Shown piece by piece: positions 1 through 31,631 of a stretch of 42,136 bases of DNA. Source of the stretch: an uncultured Cytophagales bacterium (GTDB lineage: Bacteria; Bacteroidota; Bacteroidia; Cytophagales; Thermonemataceae). Position 1 is the first letter of the stretch, and every line of letters begins with the position of its first letter. Location of the stretch: the NCBI GenBank assembly GCA_938002655.1, contig CALLAC010000029.1, forward strand, positions 1 to 42,136, in the 5' to 3' direction. The position numbers and the translations under genes were made by a program. Below the pieces are notes generated by a model. The model saw only the letters and a program-made list of their open reading frames with translations. It did no database searches and was not told where the DNA came from.

Positions 1-107
1 GTAAACGCCGTTTAAAAGCCCTTTCTTAGTTCCATGCGGAAAGCTTTACTTTGGGGCCTCCAGAATTAGCGAGGGGGGTCACAATCCAATATTTTAACCC
101 GCCTCCG

Positions 108-1937
108 ATGTGGTTATATATTGTTCGTTATGCTCTTTACAGCATGGGAGGAATGTTGGGTTTATTGCTACTTTTGTTAAGTATTGAATGGCTCAAAGTA
201 CCTGTCTATCCAATTCCCAGAGAATCGACTTTACCGATTGTGGTCTATGCCCGTGATGGAGAAACGGCGATTAATCCCACCGCGCAAAATAATACCCATC
301 GTGAACTTAAGAGCCTCTCGGATTTTTCTCCTTATTTACCCCATGCGGTGATCGCTTCAGAAGACAGTCGTTTCTATTGGCATTTTGGCGTTGATCCTAT
401 AGGTGTTACCAGAGCAGTAGTTATTAACCTTTCCTCATCTAAATTGCGTCAAGGAGCAAGCACTTTAACTCAGCAGTTAGCTCGTAGTTTATTTCCCGAA
501 GTTGGTCGGCAAAATACTGCGGGGCGCAAATTGCGGGAAGCCCTAGTCGCACTGAAACTAGAAACTGTTTATAGCAAAGATTTTATTCTGAAAACCTATT
601 TGAATCGAGTTTATTTAGGTATCGGTAGCTATGGTTTTGAAGATGCGGCTCAATTTTATTTTGAAAAATCCGCTGCGGATCTTAATCTTTCTGAAGCCGC
701 TACCTTAGTCGCTATTTTACCTGCTCCAAATTCATATAATCCTGTCAAAGATTACGATACGGCTATTGGTTTACGTAACCGCATTATCGATCGCATGGTT
801 AAATTAGGCATGGTAAACACCGAAGAAGCAGATCGGGCAAGGCGATCGCCGATTGAAGTAAGCCCGAAAGCGCGTAACACTTTTTCTAATACAGTGGCAC
901 CCTACTTTTACAGCTATGTTTTAGAAGAACTCCAAGAGTTACTGGGTTCAGATGTGACCCAAGAAGGCAACTTTATCATCGAAACTGCTTTAGACACTCA
1001 GTTACAGCAAGAAGCTGAATCAGCTTTAGAGTATTCTATTAATAGTGATGGCGATCGCTTTGGCTATAGTCAAGGCGCAGTAGTAACTTTAGATAGTAGA
1101 AACGGCAACATTCTGGCTCTTGTCGGCGGTGTTGATTTTGGAACAAGTCAGTTTAATCGAGCCGTGCAGGCAAAAAGACAGCCTGGTTCAACCTTCAAAG
1201 TCTTTGCCTATGCCGCAGCAATTGAGCAGGGCATCGATCCCGATACGGAATATCCCTGTACAGCTTTAACTTGGAAAGGACAGCAATATCGAGGTTGTGA
1301 GCGTAGTAGTGGCAATATTAATATGTATCGTGGGTTAACCCAGTCGGAGAATGTAACTGCCCTGAGAGTAGCCCAAGAAGTCGGCTTGAAAAAAGTGATC
1401 GATGTAGCGCAACGCCTGGGAGTATCTTCCCCCTTAATTGAAGCTCCTGGTTTAGTAATTGGACAAAGTGAAACCACTGTCTTAGAAATGACTAGTGCCT
1501 ATGCCACCATCGCTAATGATGGTATTTGGAATAAACCCCATGCCATTCGGCGGGTTTTAGATGGTAGTGACTGTAAAGATTCGAGCGATCGCAACACCTG
1601 TCGAGTAGTCTATTTCTTTGACGATAACGAAGACACTATTTTTGATGATGGCACTGTTAATGATGCGATCGAGGAAAATGTTACGGATAAACTTACAGAA
1701 ATGTTGCAGTTATCAGAAGAAGGGACAGGAAAAGCAGCATTTATTGACCAAGGTGAAGCAGGAAAAACGGGAACAACAGACAAAAATGTTGATCTCTGGT
1801 TTATTGGTTATATTCCCAAGAAAAACTGGGTAACGGGAGTATGGTTAGGCAATGATGATAACTCTCCTACTAGGGGCAGTAGCTATCAGGCAGCTAGTCT
1901 TTGGGGAAGATATATGAAGCAGGCGGTAAGTAATTAG
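108..1937 (+). CDS. Class A penicillin-binding protein (transglycosylase/transpeptidase), cyanobacterial type
   Basis: Bifunctional peptidoglycan synthase: it polymerises glycan strands from lipid II and cross-links stem peptides on the outer face of the inner membrane. One membrane segment lies near the N-terminus (GGMLGLLLLLLSIEW). The GT51 transglycosylase motifs follow in order: EDSRFYWHFGVD, QGASTLTQQLAR, KLREALVALKLE and LNRVYLGIGSYG. The transpeptidase domain has the active-site SxxK (PGSTFK), SEN and KTGTT. About 609 aa, a normal length for the family. I chose ATG 108, just before the membrane segment; a TTG at 51 gives 19 more residues, and TAG at 27-29 closes the frame upstream. The gene carries three GCGATCGC octamers, a cyanobacterial hallmark, unlike anything after 3.2 kb. 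Function is certain; host assignment is inference. Confidence 0.93.
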   Translation: MWLYIVRYALYSMGGMLGLLLLLLSIEWLKVPVYPIPRESTLPIVVYARDGETAINPTAQNNTHRELKSLSDFSPYLPHAVIASEDSRFYWHFGVDPIGVTRAVVINLSSSKLRQGASTLTQQLARSLFPEVGRQNTAGRKLREALVALKLETVYSKDFILKTYLNRVYLGIGSYGFEDAAQFYFEKSAADLNLSEAATLVAILPAPNSYNPVKDYDTAIGLRNRIIDRMVKLGMVNTEEADRARRSPIEVSPKARNTFSNTVAPYFYSYVLEELQELLGSDVTQEGNFIIETALDTQLQQEAESALEYSINSDGDRFGYSQGAVVTLDSRNGNILALVGGVDFGTSQFNRAVQAKRQPGSTFKVFAYAAAIEQGIDPDTEYPCTALTWKGQQYRGCERSSGNINMYRGLTQSENVTALRVAQEVGLKKVIDVAQRLGVSSPLIEAPGLVIGQSETTVLEMTSAYATIANDGIWNKPHAIRRVLDGSDCKDSSDRNTCRVVYFFDDNEDTIFDDGTVNDAIEENVTDKLTEMLQLSEEGTGKAAFIDQGEAGKTGTTDKNVDLWFIGYIPKKNWVTGVWLGNDDNSPTRGSSYQAASLWGRYMKQAVSN

Positions 1938-1967
1938 TGCTATTTCAGTTGAGACTCGTTTAAATAA

Positions 1968-2273
1968 AGCGATCGCCCTGATGCAACTGAGGAACTAGAT
2001 ATCAAGCCCTACGAGTCAGATATGCGTCATCTGATTAACACTTATATCCAGGCAGATTCACAAGAGACTCTGGGGAACTTAAGCTCTCTTTCCCTTACAG
2101 AAGCTATTATCGAGACTGGTATCCACGATGTTATTGCCCAAAGACTCAATCGCCAGAGAAACTTATCAAATAATGCGATCGCTGAAGCTATCATTAATAA
2201 TGTTCGCAGGACAATCGTTCGCGATCAACATCCTCAACGAACACTATCCAACTTGGCGCGAAGCTCGTGCTGA
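1968..2273 (+). pseudogene. Remnant of type I restriction enzyme HsdR, C-terminal domain
   Basis: The reading frame opens just after an in-frame TAA at 1965-1967 with no suitable start. It reads through IKPYESDMRHLINTYIQAD, LSLTEAIIETGIHD and NAIAEAIINNVRRTIVRDQ. These match my memory of the C-terminal helical domain of HsdR, the translocase/nuclease subunit of type I restriction systems. Everything N-terminal (nuclease, DEAD helicase) is missing. After TIVRDQ the family match ends; in another frame a tail containing HYPTWREARAELNELPL runs to a stop at 2316, which I read as a second gene scrap fused on. No HsdM or HsdS is present. Non-functional fossil; the family assignment is recalled, not searched. 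Confidence 0.7.
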
Positions 2274-2316
2274 ATTAAATGAACTACCTTTAACTGATGA
2301 AGCTTGGTACGAATAA

Positions 2317-2484
2317 ATTTAAGTTATCTCAACTGCCCTGTAAAACTGATTTGAATGCAATGTAAATTGCGAATGTAAATTGCGATCGCCAAATAATAGA
2401 GGATTTCATATATCAACTCCTAAGCTTCTCTCTGACACGATCTCGATTGCGATCGCTAATTTCAATACGATAAGTTAACTAAGC
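2317..2484. other. Intergenic, no gene seen
   Basis: Non-coding stretch between the restriction and integrase remnants. It has two HIP1 octamers and a short near-tandem repeat of TGTAAATTGCGA at about 2361-2387. I see no promoter or RNA structure I could defend. Confidence 0.5.
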
Positions 2485-3156
2485 TTAAGGTAGAAATTTT
2501 GAGATATGGATGAATAGACTTATCCCAAGGCTCTTAGCTGAACTCTCATATACTTCCATACCCTTACTATCCATCTCCTTAGCCATTACATCAATACAAT
2601 GACAAAGAAGCCTACCCCTTTCTACACAAAGATTGTGAAGGTTTTTCTTTTGTTGGTCTGTAAGAAGTAAAGGCAATCCCAAGTCATCATCAGTAAATAA
2701 TGTAGCAATTGTTGAGGCTGCAAAATGAACTTGTAAGTAAAGAACAAATTCTGAGGCTTTAGGAAGCTCAAGTAAATACTTCGGGGTTTTAGATAAATAG
2801 CGATCGCAATCTTTCCATAGGTAAGTTTAGGTTGTTGCTGCGATTCTAGTTTCTGACTGCTGCTTATATAAATCCCAGAGTTCGATTAGATTGTATTCTC
2901 TCTGTTTCTGACTTCTGGCAATCTCAAGAGTTTTGGCATGAGTAGGAGAGTAGCGAGCATAGGTATCATCGAAGTCACCTAAATTTATATCACGATTTAT
3001 TAGCTTTGCTGCTTTGAGTGCCGTTAACCATCCATCATCATTTACCTGAGCAATGCGTAATTCATGGCGTTTGCCTTTGGGGTAACTGAATCTAATTCGA
3101 TATCGGTTTGCTTTGATATCTACGGAAACCTTACCAATACGGGCTTTTGCTTGACC
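2485..3156 (-). pseudogene. Degenerate cyanobacterial-type phage/tyrosine integrase, N-terminal part
   Basis: Read on the minus strand from 3156, the frame has no start codon and a TAA directly upstream (3157-3159). It encodes an arm-binding domain (GKVSVDIKANRYRIRFSYP, KGKRHELRI, AAKLINRDINLGDFD) and the start of a core-binding domain (LIELWDLYKQQ), as in cyanobacterial phage integrases. An in-frame TAA at 2827-2829 interrupts it, but the same frame continues as core-binding-like sequence (YLSKTPKYLLELPKASEF, HFAASTIATLFTD). It then diverges into an unrecognised tail ending at 2485. The catalytic domain with its R-H-R-Y residues is absent. The remnant starts 100 bp beyond the 3' end of tRNA-Asp and reads the same way, the usual layout for an integrase next to its attachment site. 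Its in-frame stop could also be a sequencing error. Confidence 0.65.
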
Positions 3157-3255
3157 TTACTGAATACATGGGGTAATTGCCCCAAATTTGCCCCAAAAAA
3201 GAATCACTACCAAGTCATTCCGCTTGATAGTGTCTTCTGCATTGTATATATAATA

Positions 3256-3329
3256 CGGGACTGACGGGACTCGAACCCGCGACCTCCTGCGTGACAGGCA
3301 GGCATTCTAACCAGCTGAACTACCGCTCC
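3256..3329 (-). tRNA. tRNA-Asp (GTC), chimeric acceptor stem
   Basis: Cloverleaf on the minus strand: 5' acceptor strand GGAGCGG, D-arm, anticodon stem CCTGC/GCAGG around CTGTCAC (anticodon GTC, Asp), T-arm GCGGGTTCGAGTCCCGT. The 3' acceptor strand is CAGTCCC plus discriminator G. It mispairs with GGAGCGG at two positions (A3-C70, G6-A67) and has one G-T pair. A Bacteroidota tRNA-Asp should end CCGCTCC here, while CAGTCCC fits a 5' strand GGGACTG of cyanobacterial type. The gene therefore looks like a Bacteroidota 5' portion joined to a cyanobacterial 3' end inside the shared T-arm. CCA is not encoded. Aminoacylation function is doubtful if the sequence is real. Confidence 0.85.
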
Positions 3330-3342
3330 GTTTTTAGTGTTG

Positions 3343-3350
3343 CAAAAGTA
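3343..3350 (-). promoter_or_regulatory. Bacteroidota -7 element for tRNA-Asp
   Basis: TACTTTTG on the minus strand, ending 13 bp before the tRNA 5' base. It fits the Bacteroidota consensus TAnnTTTG and matches the elements in front of the tRNA-Thr and tRNA-Ala genes. It shows that the 5' half of this tRNA belongs to the Bacteroidota part. Confidence 0.7.
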
Positions 3351-3399
3351 GAAATCTTTTTCTTTCTTGCCAAATATTTTGTTAAATTTTTTTTTCACA

Positions 3400-4137
3400 A
3401 TGAAAAAACTTGGACTGATTGGGTATCCCCTAACTCATTCATTTTCAAAAAAATATTTCCAAGAAAAATTCTTTCGGGAAAATTTGCATAGCTACACATA
3501 CCAGCTATATCCCATAGAAAATATTTATCAATTTCCCCAACTACTTGCCCAAGAACCCGAACTTATCGGCTTAAATGTTACTATTCCGTACAAAGAGCAA
3601 ATCTTGCCTTTTTTGGACGAAATACACGAAAATGCTCAAAAAATTGGTGCTATCAATACCATAGCTATCCAAAATGGCAAAAAAATAGGCTACAATACCG
3701 ATTATGAAGGTTTTTTGATTTCTCTACAAAATTGGATAGGACATCAGAAGCCTTCCAAAGCTCTTGTTTTAGGAACAGGTGGAGCAAGCAAAGCTGTACA
3801 AGCAGTTTTAGAACATTTACAAATTCTTTTTCAGGTAGTTTCCCGAAATAAAAAAGCTACTTTTCTCTGCTATAGCGAACTTTCTTGCCAGATTATAGAA
3901 AGCTCTCAACTGATTATCAACACTACTCCACTCGGCATGTATCCCTACACAGATACCTACCCCCCTATTCCTTACCAGTATATTTCCGAAAAACACTTTC
4001 TATACGATTTGGTGTACAATCCTGAACAAACACTTTTCTTGCAAAAAGGACAAACTCGGGGAGCTAAAACAAAAAATGGATTAGAAATGCTTTACTTGCA
4101 AGCCGAAGCGGCTTGGAATATTTGGCGGAATATTTAA
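3400..4137 (+). CDS. aroE: Shikimate dehydrogenase
   Basis: NADPH-dependent reduction of 3-dehydroshikimate to shikimate in chorismate and aromatic amino acid synthesis, cytosolic. Start ATG 3400 gives the typical beginning KKLGLIGYPLTHSFS with the shikimate-binding serines. The catalytic Lys65 lies in NVTIPYKE and the partner Asp101 in YNTDYEG. The nucleotide-binding loop is GTGGAS, and NTTPLGM follows. At 245 aa it is a normal, slightly short family member. An 11-residue upstream extension in the same frame (from 3367) lacks homologous character. It stands alone between tRNA-Asp (divergent) and a convergent minus-strand gene. It is the first clearly Bacteroidota protein after the junction. 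Confidence 0.95.
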   Translation: MKKLGLIGYPLTHSFSKKYFQEKFFRENLHSYTYQLYPIENIYQFPQLLAQEPELIGLNVTIPYKEQILPFLDEIHENAQKIGAINTIAIQNGKKIGYNTDYEGFLISLQNWIGHQKPSKALVLGTGGASKAVQAVLEHLQILFQVVSRNKKATFLCYSELSCQIIESSQLIINTTPLGMYPYTDTYPPIPYQYISEKHFLYDLVYNPEQTLFLQKGQTRGAKTKNGLEMLYLQAEAAWNIWRNI

Positions 4138-4168
4138 TAAAAAAGCCTCCTTGCATTTCTTGCAAGGA
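4138..4168 (-). terminator. Rho-independent terminator
   Basis: Inverted repeat TCCTTGCA/TGCAAGGA (4148-4155, 4161-4168) with a 5-nt loop. On the minus strand a run of Ts follows, so it ends the 4183-7404 transcript. It sits between two convergent genes. Confidence 0.75.
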
Positions 4169-4182
4169 AGCAAAGCAAATTT

Positions 4183-7100
4183 TTACTTCATTACCTGTAT
4201 CCATCCACTACAATTCACTCCTGAAGGTGATTGCAAATGATAGTAATATGTTCCTGCTATGATCTCTTTTCCATCCCCCCATTCTTTTTTGTAATTGTCA
4301 GACTGATACACCAACTTACCCCAACGATTCCAAATCTTTATTTTAGAACCTGCTTCTGCCACTTCAAGAATATCATTCACACCATCGCCATTAGGCGTAA
4401 TAACGTTAGGCGGGGAAATAGGCGGTTTGGGGATAGTAACTTTCTTTTCTATTTTTGTTTCACAATCATTCAAATTTACCCCCACTAATGTAATTGTATA
4501 TTCGCGATCAGGAACAAGGTAAGGGTGTTCAGGAGGAATTGTAGTTGTGTAGGTGGTGCCATCTCCCATCGACCAACGAAAAGCCCTGAATTGAAGCGTA
4601 TCTACATTTACCAAATTCACTTTTACACGATAAGGGCTGTTACAATCTTTTAAAACTTTGAAATCAAAATCTACGGGAAAAGCAGGTATCACGGTTACTT
4701 TCACTTGCTTTCGCACGGTACAATTGTCATCCTTCATTTCCAAAGTATAAGTAGTAGTTTGTAAAGGAGAAGCGATAGGGTCGGCAATATTAGGATTGCT
4801 CAAGCCCGTAGTAGGTGTCCATTTATAAGTTTTTGCTCCGCTTGCTACCAATTGTATGCTGCTAAACTTACAAATCGTAGCATCGTTGGGGGCTTGAAAG
4901 TTGGGAATAGCTACTACAAGATTTTCTATGCGTTGGGCTGTTTTACTGCAATTAGTTACAAACAAACGCACCTTATACGTTCCCGAACTTGTAAAGGTAT
5001 AAGAAAAGTTTTGTTGGGTAGTAGTTGTGAACAAAACATTTCCTGCTAAATCGTAGATAGTCCATTCGAAGCTATCGAATTCGGTTACATTGTTAGGGAA
5101 AAAGAAATTTACTTTTGCCGAGCAAGATGTTCCACCACCAATAATAGTTGTATTGCTGATGGGGTCTTGCATGGTGAAATCGGCATTGATATTAGTTTGA
5201 AACTTGAAAACAGCACAATCCCAGCCTGCTCCCGAGCCAATCGTAGGTTGCCAAACACCAGGTGTAGTCAAAAATCCACTATTTGTACAAACAGCGTGAT
5301 AAATCGTTCCATTTTTAGCAAAACGACTTGTTCCTCCATCTACATGCTCTCCTGAAGAAGCTCCTCCAACATACGTCGCATATAATAAACCTGTCATATT
5401 CGGACGATAGACAGCAAGATAAAAATCTCTCCCGTCTGTAGTAGATTTGAAGGCATCAGGCGTAACAGGCGAACCCGTAACATTAGGAATACTGCTCCAT
5501 CCACCATAGCCTGAAATGTAGATATTGCCACACACATCTACGAGAAAAGCCGTAGGAGAAAGATTATATGTTCCGTTATTGTTTCCTACACGTGTACTCC
5601 ACTGAGTTGCAGTTAGTTCACTATCAAGTTTGTGGATAAATTGCCCACTATTGCCGTTATTATACACACTTGCAGGCGAGATAGGGTAAGCTCCACCACG
5701 ACTTTGTCCATAAGCATATACGTTATCGTTCGTATCTACATCAATGAAGAAAACCATATCGGCATTGCTTGTACCCAAATAAGTACTGCGAATGAGGTTT
5801 CCATTAGCATCAAATTTAGCAATGAAGCCATCATCGTTGCCAAAAGCATTGGTATTCAATCCTGTAGCGTTTGGCAAGTTGTTGCTTCGGGTACCTCCGC
5901 CAATAAAAATTTCTCCCAAAGTATTTGTTTTTACAGACAGGGCCAAATCCAAGTCATTTCCACCAAAATAACGTCCAAAGATGAGGTTCAGATTATCGTC
6001 AAATTTTAAAAGCAAGGCGTCTTGCCCCCCTTGTAGTGTACCTGTAACACCTGCAATTGTATTGGAAGTAGTATTAGTTGCTACAAAAATATCGTTATTC
6101 GCATCCACGTAAATATCACCACGACTTCCATCGCCGTGGTTGTTTATTGTCCAAGCCAAAGAACTTGCTTTAATGGCTTCATTGCCACTGCCACCTAACA
6201 TTCGAGCTCGGTTCAATGTACCATCGGCATTGAGTTTGACAATGTACATATCCGTACCATTGCTGTACGTAGAAGCTGTAACACTTGCCGAAGTTCCACC
6301 TTGAAACGTAGGACCAAACGTAACAGGAAAATCATTGGAACCTGTTGCTCCGAAAGCATAGAGTTTATTGTTGTTATCTACTACTAAACTATGAGGGATT
6401 TCATTTTGGTTTCCACCAATGAAAGTAACATACAAGAGTGTTGTACCAGTAGGATTGTATTTATAAAGGCGAATATTGATAGAACCTCCCAAAGTACCTA
6501 CATTGGTGGGTGTAGGAGAACCTGCACGCATGCCAGGTCCGAAAGAGGTAGAACCTGAATAGAGATGCTCTGTCTCATCAAAGCAAGCTGTATTGCCATA
6601 ATTACTTGATGTAGCTCCTGAATAAGTAGAAAAAACTATACCAGGATCTATAATGAGAGGATATCTTTTATTGTAACCTTGTGGAAATTCAAAACTCACC
6701 ACATTGCCATTCAAAACAAATTTGGTAGGCACTTCTACTTCTTTGCCTTTAATAATCTGATAGCTGTATGGTTTTTTTTCAAAAACGCTTCCAAGTGTGG
6801 TTTTTATTTCCAACGAACCATCAGGCAAGAGTTCCATTCCTGCAACATAGTCATACCGCATTTGAATAAGACGAGGATTGGCTCCTACATCTAAATGAAA
6901 TTCATACTTCAAAGTATTTCCCTTGCTAAATAAATGATAGGAAATGTTTGAGTAGATATTTTCAAAGAGTACTTTACCAAAAGCATTGCACCTATCTGCC
7001 CAAAATTTTCTATCATTTCCGAGGTAGTAGTTGTATTTAGTAGGCTGAAGGTCTGTGGGTTTGGCTTGTACAGGACTTGCCCCTAAAAAATTAACGATAA

Positions 7101-7404
7101 AGCTATGATAGCGAATTTCGGCATTGGGGTCAATATCTTCGGGGTGCTCTTGGTGATAACGCTTATGAACGGCTTGTTCATCATAGAAAAAGTACTGCAA
7201 ACTGCCATTTTGCACATCCAGAAAACCTGAGGGAATTTCAGCTCGGAACTGAATGTCGCTATGCCATTGTCCTTTATTTTCTACAAAGGAGATTTTCGGG
7301 GGCACGACTTCTAAGTTTCTAATAAGAGTTTGCTTACTATTTTGAGCATATAAATTGCCTAATATCCCCACCCATAGTAAAACAGATAAGTAATTGTTCT
7401 TCAT
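4183..7404 (-). CDS. T9SS type B cargo protein with SBBP propeller repeats and PKD-like domains
   Basis: Large exported or cell-surface protein of 1,073 aa. A signal peptide (KNNYLSVLLWVGILGNLYAQ) is followed at about residues 35-230 by the Bacteroidota domain often found before propellers (starts FVENKGQWHSDIQF). Residues 255-720 hold repeated beta-propeller (SBBP) units of the type DANNDIFVATNT and DTNDNVYAYGQS. Residues 740-960 hold PKD/Ig-like modules (FRAFRWSMGDGTTY). The last 85 residues are a gliding-motility-associated type B sorting domain (PPNVITPNGDGVNDILEV, IKIWNRWGKLVYQSDNY, GTYYYHL). That domain is known to direct secretion through the type IX system and surface attachment. The partner or ligand is unknown. 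It lies downstream of two GldJ-like genes on the same strand, separated by a terminator, so shared location rather than shared transcript links them. Confidence 0.9.
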   Translation of the reverse strand: MKNNYLSVLLWVGILGNLYAQNSKQTLIRNLEVVPPKISFVENKGQWHSDIQFRAEIPSGFLDVQNGSLQYFFYDEQAVHKRYHQEHPEDIDPNAEIRYHSFIVNFLGASPVQAKPTDLQPTKYNYYLGNDRKFWADRCNAFGKVLFENIYSNISYHLFSKGNTLKYEFHLDVGANPRLIQMRYDYVAGMELLPDGSLEIKTTLGSVFEKKPYSYQIIKGKEVEVPTKFVLNGNVVSFEFPQGYNKRYPLIIDPGIVFSTYSGATSSNYGNTACFDETEHLYSGSTSFGPGMRAGSPTPTNVGTLGGSINIRLYKYNPTGTTLLYVTFIGGNQNEIPHSLVVDNNNKLYAFGATGSNDFPVTFGPTFQGGTSASVTASTYSNGTDMYIVKLNADGTLNRARMLGGSGNEAIKASSLAWTINNHGDGSRGDIYVDANNDIFVATNTTSNTIAGVTGTLQGGQDALLLKFDDNLNLIFGRYFGGNDLDLALSVKTNTLGEIFIGGGTRSNNLPNATGLNTNAFGNDDGFIAKFDANGNLIRSTYLGTSNADMVFFIDVDTNDNVYAYGQSRGGAYPISPASVYNNGNSGQFIHKLDSELTATQWSTRVGNNNGTYNLSPTAFLVDVCGNIYISGYGGWSSIPNVTGSPVTPDAFKSTTDGRDFYLAVYRPNMTGLLYATYVGGASSGEHVDGGTSRFAKNGTIYHAVCTNSGFLTTPGVWQPTIGSGAGWDCAVFKFQTNINADFTMQDPISNTTIIGGGTSCSAKVNFFFPNNVTEFDSFEWTIYDLAGNVLFTTTTQQNFSYTFTSSGTYKVRLFVTNCSKTAQRIENLVVAIPNFQAPNDATICKFSSIQLVASGAKTYKWTPTTGLSNPNIADPIASPLQTTTYTLEMKDDNCTVRKQVKVTVIPAFPVDFDFKVLKDCNSPYRVKVNLVNVDTLQFRAFRWSMGDGTTYTTTIPPEHPYLVPDREYTITLVGVNLNDCETKIEKKVTIPKPPISPPNVITPNGDGVNDILEVAEAGSKIKIWNRWGKLVYQSDNYKKEWGDGKEIIAGTYYYHLQSPSGVNCSGWIQVMK

Positions 7405-7460
7405 TGCAAAATAATAATTTTATCCAAAAACTAAACTGGACAAAATTATTCAAAAAAATT

Positions 7461-7490
7461 AAAATAACCAAAATTTTATTTGGTTATTTT
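7461..7490 (-). terminator. Rho-independent terminator directly after the GldJ-like gene
   Basis: Perfect 10-bp inverted repeat AAAATAACCA/TGGTTATTTT with a 10-nt loop, touching the stop codon at 7491. The minus-strand 3' arm runs into TTTT and further T-rich sequence. Confidence 0.75.
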
Positions 7491-9143
7491 TCATTCTTCT
7501 TCTTCTTCTTGGACTTTATTTTTCTGCTTTCTTTGCTGTTTTTCTTGCATTCTGATTTGTTTTTCTTTGGCTCTTTGTAATTTTTTTCTTTCTTTGGCTT
7601 GTTGTGCATCAAACTTTGCTTTACGTTTTTTGATAGCTTCGGTGAGATCTACATCACTAGTAATCGTATTATTTTGAGGCTTATCTTTCTTGGGAGCATA
7701 ATCCATTGCACAACGAAAACCCAAAGTAGCCAGACTTTTATCCATTTCTAAATATCTACGTGTACCAGGGATAAGCCAGTAAGCCACATCTTTCCAAGAA
7801 CCACCTTTGTAGACTTTGAAGCGAGCCAGTTTTTCTTTTGCTACAACATTGCCAGGTAAGCCAAGCATATTATGGCTCATTGCATTTGGGAAAGGCATTA
7901 AATTTTCTCTGGCAATATTTATAGTATCTTTTTGTTGCTGTTTAATTTTTTGTCCTTTTGCTTTCATTGTTGTATCCGATCTACCATAAAGCATTACATC
8001 GAGCGTGAGTTTGTTTTGATAAGTAGAATCCATGTAAGTAGTAACTCTTTTTACCTGACGCAAATCGAGATAGTCTTCCCAGCCTTCTACAAAGTAGGCA
8101 TCTTCTACCCATTCATTTACATTGCCTGCCATATTGTATAAGCCAAAATCATTGGGCGGATAAGAGTATATGGATACTGTAAGCATTGCTCCATCGTTGA
8201 GCCTACCTGCAATGCCTGCATAATCTCCTCTACCACGCTTGAAATTGGCTAAGAATAGTCCTTTGTTAGGATTATAGGGATTACGTGTTTGGCGAGTATC
8301 CCAAGGGTACAGGCGTTCTTTACCTGTGATACGAGCATTATCATATTGAGTAGCTACCATAGCTTTAGCGGCGTATTCCCATTCGGCTTCGGTTGGCAGG
8401 CGATAATTAGGAAATTTGATAAGGTTAGTATCTTTTATTTTTTTGGGTTTGGTAAACTCCCCTACTGTTAGTTTTCCATCCAGTTTTACTCCTGTATAGT
8501 AGCTTTTTTCTTCTTCTTGATAATGATTTACCATTTTAGTTCGCCATTTGCAAAATTCTTGTGCTTGTATCCACGTAACTCCCACAACAGGATACATTCT
8601 AAACCCTGGATGACGAAGATAATTCTTAACATAGGCATCATTGGCAGTAGCCTCAGAAGCCCAAACAGTAGTATCAGGTAATAAAACCTCTTCGGCGTAT
8701 TCCTCAAAAGTCATTCCTGCGGGAATAGAATCGCGATGATGATAAAAAAAATTCATAAATTCAAGCCAATGAATATTGGCTATTTCGGTTCTATCCATAT
8801 AAAAAGAAGGAACAATAACACGTGTAAGACGATTGCGAGAAAGGTTAATAACATCTTCTTCGGTAATTCCCATCACAAAAGCTCCCCCCTCAATAAAAAC
8901 CATATTAGGGGCATTGGGCATATCATAATATTTTGCCACAAACATACTGTTATCAATGGTACTATCGTTGTAGGGGATACCTGTAACCTGACTAACACCA
9001 TCTACATTACCCGCTTGCATATCCTCAAAGGATTGCCGCTCGATTTTATTTTTTTTCTTGAATAAAGAGCAAGCCGAAAAAGTACAAAAAACTATAAGTA
9101 GAAAAGCCAAGTATATGTATATGTATCGAACTTGAATTTTCAT
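7491..9143 (-). CDS. GldJ-like gliding motility lipoprotein (SUMF1/FGE-fold), second paralog
   Basis: Lipoprotein of the GldJ group, which in gliding Bacteroidota is needed for gliding and for stability of the T9SS component GldK. I start at ATG 9143, giving a compact lipoprotein signal ending FCTFSAC; ATG 9176 adds 11 residues. The FGE-sulfatase-like domain runs from about residue 65 to 490: PNMVFIEGGAFVMG, SFYMDRTEIANIHWLEF, YPVVGVTWIQAQEFCKWRT, YRLPTEAEWEYAAKA, YNMAGNVNEWVEDAY, VYKGGSWKDVAYW and LGFRCAM. No cysteines lie between GGSW and GFRC, where formylglycine-generating enzymes keep their catalytic pair, so oxidase activity is unlikely. The last 50 residues are a Lys/Gln/Glu-rich helix-like tail ending in five Glu. 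It shares QVTGIPYN after the signal with the next gene upstream, so the two are paralogs. Confidence 0.8.
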   Translation of the reverse strand: MKIQVRYIYIYLAFLLIVFCTFSACSLFKKKNKIERQSFEDMQAGNVDGVSQVTGIPYNDSTIDNSMFVAKYYDMPNAPNMVFIEGGAFVMGITEEDVINLSRNRLTRVIVPSFYMDRTEIANIHWLEFMNFFYHHRDSIPAGMTFEEYAEEVLLPDTTVWASEATANDAYVKNYLRHPGFRMYPVVGVTWIQAQEFCKWRTKMVNHYQEEEKSYYTGVKLDGKLTVGEFTKPKKIKDTNLIKFPNYRLPTEAEWEYAAKAMVATQYDNARITGKERLYPWDTRQTRNPYNPNKGLFLANFKRGRGDYAGIAGRLNDGAMLTVSIYSYPPNDFGLYNMAGNVNEWVEDAYFVEGWEDYLDLRQVKRVTTYMDSTYQNKLTLDVMLYGRSDTTMKAKGQKIKQQQKDTINIARENLMPFPNAMSHNMLGLPGNVVAKEKLARFKVYKGGSWKDVAYWLIPGTRRYLEMDKSLATLGFRCAMDYAPKKDKPQNNTITSDVDLTEAIKKRKAKFDAQQAKERKKLQRAKEKQIRMQEKQQRKQKNKVQEEEEE

Positions 9144-28132: not shown

Positions 28133-29122
28133 AACTTTTACGTAAATTTTGGTTACCTTGAAGCTATCGGGGTAACCTTGTTTTTCGTACTTTATGTTTT
28201 GTATTTTGTTTTTTCATTCCAAAGAGCAAAAGTTTTAGGTTTGCCTCTACGAGGATATTTTTGGCTGAAAATGCTCTTTCGCTCTGTTTATTTTGGCTTG
28301 TTTGTAATAGCTATCCTCGGACCTACTATTGGCGAAGAAAAACAACAAGTAAAGGTACAAGGTAAAGATATAATGTTTGTGGTAGATGTTTCTGCTTCTA
28401 TGCTTGCCCAAGATGTGCTTCCTTCTAGGCTAGAAAAGGTGAAATTTGAATTGCAAAATCTTTTAGAAAATCCTTTGCAAGCACGTATAGGAATAATAGT
28501 TTTTGCCCAAGAAGCCTATCAATTTTGCCCCCTTACCAAAGACTACTCACTCTTGCAAAATGTATTTATTCCTGCTCTTTCGGCTCAAATGATGAAAAAC
28601 TCAAGTACCCAAATCTATAATGCTTTGGAACTTGCTCTGAAAAGACTTTTGAACGAAAATCAAGACCAAATTCACAAAAAAGCCAAAGTTATTGTTTTAT
28701 TCACTGATGGTGAAGACTGGGGAGAAAATATCAACGCTTTGGCTGAAACTATTAAGCAAAAAGGAGTTCATTTGCTTGTAGTAGGCATAGGCTCGGAAAA
28801 AGGTGGTCCTATTTTTACATCCACAGGTTTCAAAAAAAACAACAAAGGCGAAAAAGTTATCAGCAAACTAAACCGCAACTATCTGCTAAATTTTGTTCAG
28901 CGAGCAGAAGGAAAATACTTTGAAATTAGTCAGGAAAACCAAATTATCCGAAATGATATGGACAAAGTTCGAGCAACTCTGGAGGAAATTCAGGGTATTT
29001 TGCAAGATAAGCGAGAAATCAGCTTAGAAGCAAACAAGTATTACTATCCTTTACTTTTGGCTTTTATGATGCTCTGCTTAGATACAATTATTACAACACG
29101 TATCATCAAACTGCCTTCTTAA
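28130..29122 (+). CDS. BatB-like VWA-domain membrane protein
   Basis: 330-aa inner-membrane protein. There is a helix near the N-terminus (AIGVTLFFVLYVLYFVFSF), a second at FGLFVIAILGPTIG, then a VWA domain facing outward and a closing helix (YYYPLLLAFMMLCLDTIITT). The metal site (MIDAS) is complete: DVSAS (Asp86, Ser88, Ser90), a Thr in KNSSTQIYNAL and Asp in LFTDGEDWG. BatB homology seems to extend to YLEAIGVTLFF, which favours the TTG start at 28130. There is no ATG until codon 48. BatA, BatC and a MoxR ATPase are not adjacent; a BatA-like protein lies 5 kb away. It ends with a 4-bp overlap with the convergent hisC. Confidence 0.82.
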   Translation: MNFYVNFGYLEAIGVTLFFVLYVLYFVFSFQRAKVLGLPLRGYFWLKMLFRSVYFGLFVIAILGPTIGEEKQQVKVQGKDIMFVVDVSASMLAQDVLPSRLEKVKFELQNLLENPLQARIGIIVFAQEAYQFCPLTKDYSLLQNVFIPALSAQMMKNSSTQIYNALELALKRLLNENQDQIHKKAKVIVLFTDGEDWGENINALAETIKQKGVHLLVVGIGSEKGGPIFTSTGFKKNNKGEKVISKLNRNYLLNFVQRAEGKYFEISQENQIIRNDMDKVRATLEEIQGILQDKREISLEANKYYYPLLLAFMMLCLDTIITTRIIKLPS

Positions 29123-30192
29123 ATCAAATCATTGGGGCTTTGCTTTTGGTAATAAGCTAAAAGTGCTTTGAGCAAAATCTGATTCTCTTCTTTTGTTCCG
29201 ACACTTATTCGCAAACAATCTGCTACTACTTTGACTCGACTGCGAACAATAATTTTTTGCGAAAGCAGATATTCAAAGACTTGTTGAGCATTTTTCATTT
29301 TTACAAGTAAAAAATTTGCATCAGAGGGAAATACCTTTTCTACAAAAGGTAGCTGAGCGAGTGCATGTTCTAAAAAATTTCGTTGTTCCAAAATTTTTTG
29401 TACCATTTCATTCTTAAAGCGTTCGTATTGTAAGCTATCGTAAACTAGCTCTTGTGTAGTTTTACTAATATTGTAAGGAGCCTTGATTTTATTCAATACG
29501 GCAATAATTTCGTAATGAGCAAAAGCCATTCCCAAACGCAGAGCCGCCAAACCCCAAGCCTTTGAAAAAGTCTGGATTACAACCAGACGAGGATACTTAT
29601 GCAACTCTTTCAGAAAAGTGGCTTGTGGCGAAAAATCGATATAGGCTTCATCAATAAGGGTAATACCTTGAAAAGTATCTAAAATTTCTAAGATTGTTTC
29701 TTTTTTCAAAAGATTACCACTCGGATTATTCGGCGAACAGATGAAAAGAATTTTCGTATGTGGTGTAATAGCTTGTTTTACTGCCTCGATATCTATTTGA
29801 AAATTGGCATCAAGTGGTATTTTTTGCACAGGCACGGCATTGATGTTGGCACTTACCTCATACATTCCGTAAGTAGGAGGCATAATCAGAACACTTTCGC
29901 GATAAGGCTCACAAAAAGCTCGAATGAGTAAATCGATGGCTTCATCGCTACCATTTCCTAAAAAAATATTTTCTGGATTTACTCCTTTGATGAGAGCCAA
30001 TTTTTCTTTGACTTTGCGTTGATAAGGGTCTGGATAGCGATTGTACATTGCCGCTGTTACCGAACCAATCGGGTTTTCGTTGGCATCAAGGAAAATACCT
30101 TCTTTGCCACTGTACTCATCACGAGCAGAGGCATAGGGCTCTAATTGTAGAATATGCGGACGTAAAAGATTTTGAATTTCCATTTCTATCAT
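29119..30192 (-). CDS. hisC: Histidinol-phosphate aminotransferase
   Basis: PLP enzyme for the transamination between imidazole acetol-phosphate and histidinol-phosphate in histidine synthesis. Features: substrate loop FLDANENPIG, FLGNGSDEAIDLLIRAF, CSPNNPSGN, IDEAYIDF and the PLP lysine Lys211 in TFSKAWGLAALRLG. 357 aa is normal. ATG 30192 lies two bases after the asnS stop; ATG 30183 (MEIQNLLRP) is an alternative. No other his gene is near. Related aminotransferases share the fold, but the N-terminal and C-terminal motifs (CLRISVGTKEEN) favour HisC. Confidence 0.92.
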   Translation of the reverse strand: MIEMEIQNLLRPHILQLEPYASARDEYSGKEGIFLDANENPIGSVTAAMYNRYPDPYQRKVKEKLALIKGVNPENIFLGNGSDEAIDLLIRAFCEPYRESVLIMPPTYGMYEVSANINAVPVQKIPLDANFQIDIEAVKQAITPHTKILFICSPNNPSGNLLKKETILEILDTFQGITLIDEAYIDFSPQATFLKELHKYPRLVVIQTFSKAWGLAALRLGMAFAHYEIIAVLNKIKAPYNISKTTQELVYDSLQYERFKNEMVQKILEQRNFLEHALAQLPFVEKVFPSDANFLLVKMKNAQQVFEYLLSQKIIVRSRVKVVADCLRISVGTKEENQILLKALLAYYQKQSPNDLI

Positions 30193-30194
30193 TT

Positions 30195-31631
30195 TTAAAA
30201 CTCTGCCCCCTTCGGATAACGTGGAAAGGGAATTACATCACGGATATTACTCATTCCTGTAACAAACTGCACAAGTCGTTCAAAACCTAAACCAAAACCA
30301 CTATGCGGTGCTGTTCCAAATTTACGTGTATCCAGATACCACCAAAGCTCTTGCGTAGAAATACCTAACTCTTGCATTCTATTTTTGAGCTTTTCGTAGT
30401 TTTCCTCTCTTTGCGAACCACCAATGATTTCACCTATACCTGGGAAAAGTATGTCCATAGCTCGTACGGTTTTGCCGTCGTCATTTTGTTTCATATAAAA
30501 AGCCTTGATTTCTTTGGGGTAGTTAGTCAGAACAACAGGTTTTTGGAAATGCTTTTCCACCAAATATCGTTCGTGTTCGCTCTGCAAATCTATACCCCAT
30601 TTTACTTCAAATTGGAATTTCTTTTTTTTATGATAAGGCGAAGCCAGCAAAATATCAATAGCTTCGGTGTAAGTGAGGCGTTCAAAGGGGTTTTGTATGA
30701 CAAATTTTAGTTTTTCTACAAGTGGCATTGGGCTTTTTTCTTCCTGTTTTTTGCTTTTTTCCTCGTCCAACAATCTTTTTTCTAAAATGTCCAAATCGTC
30801 AGCACAGTGCTCCAAAGCATAAGCTATCACATATTTGACAAAATCTTCTGCAAGGTTCATATTGTCGTCAAGTTCGTAAAAAGCCATTTCAGGCTCAATC
30901 ATCCAAAATTCGGCAAGGTGGCGAGTTGTATTGGAGTTTTCGGCACGAAATGTAGGACCAAAAGTATACACTTTGCCCAAACCCAAAGCCATCAGTTCAG
31001 CTTCTAACTGCCCCGAAACGGTCAGATTAGTACTTCTACCGAAAAAATCTTGTTTAAAATCTACTTCTCCTTGTTCATTTTTTGGGATATTTTCCAGAGG
31101 CAATGTAGTAACCTGAAACATTTCGCCCGCTCCTTCGGCATCGGAAGCGGTGATAATAGGCGAATGGACATAATAGAAGCCATTATCGTTGAAATATTTA
31201 TGAATGGCATAGCTCAAAGCGTGTCGTACGCGAAACACTGCTCCAAAGGTTGCTGTACGGCTACGTAAATGAGCGTGTTCACGTACGAATTCCAGGCTAT
31301 GTTTTTTGGGTTGAAAAGGATATTCATTAGGATTGGCCAGTCCATATACTTCAATGCTTTCAGCGAGTACCTCTCGGTCTTGTCCTTTACCTGTGGAAAC
31401 TACTAGTCTTCCTTTGATGTGTAAACAAGCTCCTGCTTTGATAGGTGCAATTTGCTCACGAGGAATTTTATTGAAATCTACTACAATTTGCAAATTTTTT
31501 GGTGTCGAGCCGTCATTCATCACAATAAAAGCCACTTCTCCGCTATCTCTTTCATTTCTTACCCAACCTTTTACACTTACTTCCTGATTTTGGATAGGAA
31601 TTTTGAACAAATCTTTAATACTTGATTTCAT
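30195..31631 (-). CDS. asnS: Asparagine--tRNA ligase
   Basis: Class IIb aminoacyl-tRNA synthetase charging tRNA-Asn, 478 aa. The N-terminal OB-fold anticodon-binding domain is [20 protein letters not shown]. The catalytic core holds motif 2 ([19 protein letters not shown]) and motif 3 ([20 protein letters not shown]). An insert with charged residues ([16 protein letters not shown]) is typical of Bacteroidota AsnRS. hisC follows after two bases, so the genes are surely cotranscribed. The start at 31631 precedes [15 protein letters not shown], a usual beginning. Confidence 0.96.

What the first reader, a model, noticed from the sequence alone, without database searches (positions are those of the whole stretch)
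3256..3329. tRNA-Asp gene is a cyanobacterium/Bacteroidota chimera
The 5' acceptor strand GGAGCGG and the 3' strand CAGTCCC do not pair properly (A3-C70, G6-A67). The 3' strand fits a cyanobacterial tRNA-Asp, while promoter, D-arm and anticodon arm fit Bacteroidota. The switch lies at the end of the shared 18-nt T-arm GCGGGTTCGAGTCCCGTC. Site-specific integration into a tRNA gene swaps exactly this 3' part, but an assembler overlap in a conserved tRNA would look the same. The chromosomal-type PBP on the left favours misassembly.
Basis: partly seen in the sequence, partly recalled or inferred. Interest (0 to 1): 0.75.

Follow-up and report, generated by a model that had tools for sequence, protein, structure and literature searches.

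The report
Two-organism join inside a tRNA gene
A transfer-RNA gene here is stitched from two unrelated bacteria, most likely because assembly software joined their DNA at a stretch of tRNA sequence they share, so it is probably an artefact and not a real gene.

Summary
The mispaired tRNA-Asp (3256-3329, minus strand) is really in the sequence: 5 of 7 acceptor pairs form, against 7 of 7 in 33 of 34 copies from 28 related genomes. To its right the window matches Bacteroidota congeners in gene order. To its left, 2,630 of 3,262 bases match a Pleurocapsa (cyanobacterial) MAG, mostly at 97.6-98.3%. Pleurocapsa's own tRNA-Asp matches window 3255-3323 exactly, so the two tRNAs share up to 61 nt and the join can lie anywhere in 3263-3323. 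I judge it a metagenome assembly chimera (about 0.9): the foreign DNA is a contig end; it carries a penicillin-binding protein gene and an integrase remnant without catalytic domain; no other tRNA-Asp was seen in the genome; and genes that follow tRNA-Asp in two congeners, including smc, were not found in it. Without reads, real cross-phylum integration is not excluded (about 0.05). A side observation may deserve more interest: Pleurocapsales tRNA-Asp carries a Bacteroidota-like body inside a cyanobacterial acceptor stem, unlike nearly all other cyanobacteria sampled.

The parts
3256..3329 (-). tRNA-Asp(GTC), chimeric; acceptor pairs 3-70 and 6-67 broken
3263..3323 (-). stretch shared by the two tRNAs: 61 nt identical between Pleurocapsales tRNA-Asp and three Bacteroidota relatives (G005, G026, G013); exact run of 54 nt with congeners G001 and G003, 53 nt with G002; the join lies somewhere inside it
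3323..3329 (-). 5' acceptor strand GGAGCGG, as in congeners G001 and G003
3257..3263 (-). 3' acceptor strand CAGTCCC, as in Pleurocapsales and most other cyanobacteria examined
1..3262 (.). cyanobacterial contig end. Matches to Pleurocapsa MAG G039: 1-1987 (97.6%), 2245-2463 (92.7%), 2839-2871 (100%), 2865-3262 and on to 3282 (98.3%), on three different contigs; 1988-2244 and 2464-2838 unmatched in that MAG, 1988-2228 and 2464-2693 unmatched in the further Pleurocapsales loci compared. 8 GCGATCGC sites against 0 in 3330-42136
51..1937 (+). class A penicillin-binding protein (transglycosylase + transpeptidase domains), 99% aa identity to Pleurocapsa MAG contig CALLPS010000251.1; the gene begins beyond the contig end in that MAG, and in the window its frame has a TAG at 27-29
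2692..3159 (-). remnant of the N-terminal part of a tyrosine integrase: aligns with residues 4-159 of 388; frameshift at the start (giving the first of two TAA), one internal TAA, no catalytic domain
3330..4137 (+). Bacteroidota side: region upstream of the tRNA (which is read on the minus strand) and shikimate dehydrogenase gene (aroE); tRNA-Asp and aroE lie together in three congeners

Best explanation
The window is a contig assembled from two organisms. DNA of a Bacteroidota (from the tRNA rightwards) and of a Pleurocapsa-like cyanobacterium (the left end) was joined at their tRNA-Asp genes, which share up to 61 identical bases. The cyanobacterial relatives also carry shorter copies of the tRNA-Asp 3' end, one of them beside an integrase remnant, which would add ambiguous paths in an assembly graph. 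The broken acceptor stem is what a wrong path through such a shared stretch leaves behind: the 5' strand of one tRNA and the 3' strand of the other. Shown: the two origins, the length of the shared stretch, the dead integrase, and the failure to find the expected neighbours. Inferred: that the two organisms were in one sample and that software made the join.
For: (1) Bases 1-1987 are 97.6% identical (48 differences, 36 of them in the first 600 bases) and 2865-3282 are 98.3% identical to two contigs of one Pleurocapsa MAG: near-conspecific cyanobacterial DNA, not an old transfer. (2) It is the end of a 42,136-bp contig. (3) The exact shared run is 61 nt with three relatives and 54 nt with the two closest congeners. 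(4) Congeners G001 and G003 have tRNA-Asp, aroE and the following DNA in the same order, a fully paired acceptor stem and, by eye, a terminator-like hairpin after the tRNA; the window has cyanobacterial DNA there. (5) The 11-15 kb stretch of G001 next to the tRNA (hydrophobic protein, glycosyltransferase, end of smc) gives no DNA match in G000 except the tRNA and two hits of 53 and 39 bases; the 11 kb before it gives three hits, none in smc. Protein searches for smc and the hydrophobic protein find nothing. The smc search does hit 7 of 7 other genomes of the genus and family, one of them the query's own source; the other protein search has no such control. (6) No other tRNA-Asp-like match was seen in G000; an organism with this as its only tRNA-Asp would have two mispairs in an essential acceptor stem. 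(7) The integrase remnant has no catalytic domain. (8) Tetranucleotide distance: the left piece lies nearer to Pleurocapsa contigs (0.205) than to the right part (0.319); all 11 pieces of the right part show the reverse (the reference contains about 230 bases related to the left piece).
Against: No reads or coverage were available, and co-occurrence of the two organisms in one sample is not shown; that G000 is a metagenome bin is itself assumed. The left end is not colinear with the Pleurocapsa MAG: its matches lie on three contigs, the MAG departs from the window at 1987 and again left of 2865, and 632 of 3,262 bases have no match there, so the sampled strain differs or the left end has further joins. 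In the MAG the integrase remnant sits beside only a 28-nt tRNA fragment, and the full tRNA-Asp is on another contig with a different 3' flank. With that layout the direct overlap of the integrase side with the Bacteroidota tRNA is only 20 nt (3263-3282), and a false join needs a small k-mer or a path through the full Pleurocapsa tRNA. The geometry (integrase remnant, about 90 nt, tRNA 3' end) is also what a real integration junction looks like. The missing neighbours are a weak point alone, since a real integration with a lost contig would show the same.
Confidence: 0.9

Rival explanations
1. Real site-specific integration: a Pleurocapsa element, moved by an intact integrase acting in trans, recombined at the tRNA-Asp 3' end of the Bacteroidota and replaced the last bases of its tRNA-Asp.
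For: The cyanobacterial side carries an integrase remnant about 90 nt from the tRNA 3' end. Pleurocapsales hold related integrases and tRNA-Asp 3' fragments of 28 nt (G039, G042) and 46 nt (G043); in G043 an intact integrase lies next to the fragment, so tRNA-Asp is plausibly an attachment site there.
Against: The remnant has no catalytic domain. The DNA includes a PBP gene whose relatives sit on chromosomes of other cyanobacteria (four loci are titled chromosome). Islands in tRNA genes normally restore the target (Islander, PMC4383910, start of abstract in the listing); here pairing is broken and no other tRNA-Asp was seen. In 37 other relatives no match reaches below residue 120 of this integrase. 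No second junction was seen; none was sought otherwise.
Confidence: 0.05
2. Real recombination without an integrase: cyanobacterial DNA taken up by the Bacteroidota recombined through the 54-61 nt of tRNA homology.
For: The shared stretch is long enough for homologous recombination to be conceivable.
Against: One-sided homology would leave an open end (inference). The contig end, the neighbours not found and the mispaired tRNA-Asp are explained no better than by misassembly.
Confidence: 0.02
3. An old, vertically inherited divergent tRNA-Asp of this Bacteroidota species.
For: None beyond the presence of the sequence.
Against: The adjacent left flank (2865-3282) is 98.3% identical to Pleurocapsa; three congeners have a fully paired tRNA-Asp.
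Confidence: 0.01

Closest known systems
Chimeric contigs from metagenome misassembly (as described in the GUNC paper, PMC8201837; passages seen)
   Same: Fragments from two sources joined in one contig; join in conserved shared sequence; foreign part at the contig end.
   Different: The passages seen describe the kind in general and call misassembly relatively rare beside mis-binning; they do not speak of tRNA genes.
Tyrosine-integrase genomic islands in tRNA genes (Islander, PMC4383910; start of abstract in the listing)
   Same: Integrase-type gene beside a tRNA 3' end; 3' part of the tRNA replaced.
   Different: Integrase dead, tRNA not restored, displaced tRNA fragment not seen, far end of the island not in the contig.

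Membership tests
Genomic island integrated in a tRNA gene (tyrosine integrase) | Integrase gene with catalytic domain next to the tRNA | tested here: not met
   The remnant aligns with residues 4-159 of 388 with two TAA; the Phage_integrase domain lies at 197-380 of the intact homologue
Genomic island integrated in a tRNA gene (tyrosine integrase) | Target tRNA restored by the island's own sequence | tested here: not met
   5 of 7 acceptor pairs
Genomic island integrated in a tRNA gene (tyrosine integrase) | Displaced tRNA 3' fragment at the far end of the island | tested here: inconclusive
   Only the window copy found in G000 with the congener tRNA region as query; a fragment of about 25 nt could be missed, and the far end is not in the contig
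Assembly chimera | Two parts of different taxonomic origin, each matching its own organism | tested here: met
   left end only in pieces
Assembly chimera | Join inside sequence shared by both organisms | tested here: met
   Exact shared run up to 61 nt, 54 nt with the closest congeners; only 20 nt on the integrase side if the sampled strain has the layout of the MAG
Assembly chimera | Depth step and no reads or pairs spanning the join | not testable with these tools
   No reads available

The most novel reading that the evidence does not exclude
A recent, genuine transfer of Pleurocapsa DNA into a Bacteroidota chromosome through tRNA-Asp, made possible because Pleurocapsales share the Bacteroidota tRNA-Asp body, leaving the host with a mispaired tRNA-Asp as its only copy.
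Probability: 0.05. Interest if true: 0.6.

Novelty: not a real feature. Interest (0 to 1): 0.1.

Why it matters
Mainly as a warning: two phyla can share about 60 identical bases in one tRNA gene, enough to mislead short-read assembly, and the product imitates an integration junction, integrase remnant included. A mispaired acceptor stem in a genome's only tRNA-Asp is a cheap flag for such joins. If the join were real, it would show cross-phylum integration through a shared tRNA site.

Tried and rejected
Old divergent tRNA: rejected, since the adjacent left flank is near-identical to Pleurocapsa. Window ORFs 29119-30192 and 30195-31631 resemble in size the two congener genes left of the tRNA; I translated all four and judged them different proteins by reading (HisC-like and AsnS-like by recall; no family search of the window pair). 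True left neighbours on other G000 contigs: not found. The smc search missed 8 of 38 genomes (G000 and seven known only as same order), so its silence in distant relatives carries little weight. In G002 tRNA-Asp lies by aroE but smc about 105 kb away, so that neighbourhood is not universal in the genus. A first pairing count was unreliable for copies printed with extra 3' bases and was replaced. Paper searches: chimeric contigs; Pleurocapsa and tRNA-Asp; tRNA integrases; sample type; listings only, apart from passages of one paper; none named the origin of the window.

Full report
What is there. ARAGORN places a tRNA-Asp(GTC) on the minus strand at 3255-3330. Its acceptor strands GGAGCGG and CAGTCCC form 5 of 7 pairs. 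For comparison I counted 34 tRNA-Asp(GTC) copies from 28 related genomes: 33 pair 7 of 7 and one 6 of 7. The sample: 38 other genomes, loci for 29 of them, one locus without tRNA-Asp; a doubtful ATC prediction in L083 was left out. The mispairing is real in the sequence and unusual.

Right side. From the tRNA rightwards the window matches congeners G001 (79% over 3256-8168) and G003 (76% over 3256-7420) in the same order, and G002 (69%) over tRNA-Asp and aroE. In G001 and G003 the tRNA ends in CCGTTCC, which pairs with GGAGCGG, and a terminator-like hairpin follows, judged by eye. Beyond it G001 has a hydrophobic protein without Pfam match, a glycosyltransferase (Pfam) and Smc (Smc named by recall from its sequence). 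I did not compare window 8168-42136 with relatives beyond two short hits; its composition is uniform.

Left side. The PBP protein is 99% identical to one on contig CALLPS010000251.1 of a Pleurocapsa MAG; in DNA 1-1987 is 97.6% identical, with 36 of 48 differences in the first 600 bases. Its frame has a TAG at 27-29 in the window where the MAG reads on. Two further contigs of the MAG match 2245-2463 (92.7%), 2839-2871 (100%) and 2865-3282 (98.3%). In all 2,630 of 3,262 bases are covered; 1988-2244 and 2464-2838 are not. So the left end is Pleurocapsales-like throughout its matched parts but not colinear with this MAG. GCGATCGC, an octamer that I recall as frequent in cyanobacteria (HIP1), occurs 8 times in 1-3262 and not in 3330-42136. 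Tetranucleotide distance agrees. The window is a whole contig, C29.

The shared stretch. Window 3255-3323 is 100% identical to the tRNA-Asp of G039 (the Pleurocapsa MAG), G042, G044 and G046. Pleurocapsales and Bacteroidota tRNA-Asp share an exact run of 54 nt (G001, G003), 53 nt (G002) or 61 nt (G005; G026 and G013). The join therefore lies anywhere in 3263-3323.

The integrase. On the minus strand 2692-3159 aligns with residues 4-159 of an intact 388-aa integrase of Pleurocapsales LEGE 10410 (G043), at 65% identity with two TAA. The first TAA goes with a frameshift at the start, the second is internal. The Phage_integrase domain, at 197-380 of the intact protein, is not there. In the Pleurocapsa MAG the remnant is a 103-aa frame beside a 28-nt tRNA-Asp 3' fragment, and the full tRNA-Asp is on another contig with another 3' flank. 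In G043 the intact integrase lies beside a 46-nt tRNA-Asp 3' fragment. Of 37 other relatives of G000, 32 have some match to this integrase, but none reaches below residue 120 and identities are 24-33%.

What was not found. DNA of G001 left of the tRNA (L110:11000-15060) finds in G000 only the tRNA and two hits of 53 and 39 bases. The 11 kb before it finds three hits, at 43-548 bases, none within smc. Protein searches for smc and the hydrophobic protein find nothing. For smc the same query hits 30 of 38 genomes, and 7 of 7 others of the genus and family, G001 being its source; the other protein has no such control. G000 is listed as 97.54% complete. No other tRNA-Asp-like match was seen in G000; the list of 32 tRNAs gives no anticodons.

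Weighing. A real integration and a false join would both leave a tRNA with the 5' part of one organism and the 3' part of another. What tips the scale is the contig end, the near-identity to one Pleurocapsa species including a PBP gene, the dead integrase, the broken tRNA without a second copy, and, more weakly, the missing neighbours. The weak points of the misassembly reading are that no reads were available, that co-occurrence in one sample is assumed, that the left end is itself patchy against the MAG, and that the overlap is up to 61 nt only if the sampled Pleurocapsa has its full tRNA-Asp beside the remnant (20 nt with the layout of the MAG). I stay at 0.9.

Aside. Eight Pleurocapsales or Xenococcaceae genomes have tRNA-Asp with a cyanobacterial acceptor stem and a 60-nt body that in 6 of 8 equals that of Bacteroidota such as G005 and in 2 of 8 differs at 2 sites; 19 other cyanobacteria differ at 11-13 sites (of the 28 genomes one had no match). 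In 194 genomes of the class, 185 had a match, and only three, G039 among them, reach 96% identity to this tRNA; the other listed matches are at 85% or less (at most four candidates scored in a genome, and the weak end of the list was cut). This sharing is what would make the false join possible, and it looks like a natural tRNA mosaic that deserves its own study. The same body type may be common in other phyla; I did not test that.

Noticed in passing
L141-L148, L177, L178 (tRNA-Asp genes); window 3263-3323: Pleurocapsales/Xenococcaceae tRNA-Asp has a cyanobacterial acceptor stem around a Bacteroidota-like body (0-2 differences in 60 in 8 of 8 genomes; 11-13 in 19 other cyanobacteria). In 194 class genomes only 3 reach 96% identity to it. 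Possible natural mosaic or horizontal replacement.
   Followed up: partly
L129:809-2105: Intact 388-aa tyrosine integrase beside a 46-nt tRNA-Asp 3' fragment in Pleurocapsales LEGE 10410; the fragment faces the integrase with its 5' side, opposite to the window.
   Followed up: partly
window 1987-2865; L002 from 5247; L135 left of 3256: The window departs from the Pleurocapsa MAG at 1987 (where the MAG runs into type I restriction-modification genes, named by recall) and between 2464 and 2865. Strain difference, decay, or further joins.
   Followed up: partly
window 27-29: In-frame TAG in the PBP gene near the contig end, where the Pleurocapsa MAG reads on.
   Followed up: no
L014, L059: Contigs titled Gracilibacteria and Chloroflexaceae MAG carry a cyanobacterial-type PBP (63 and 67% identity), probably mis-binned.
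   Followed up: no
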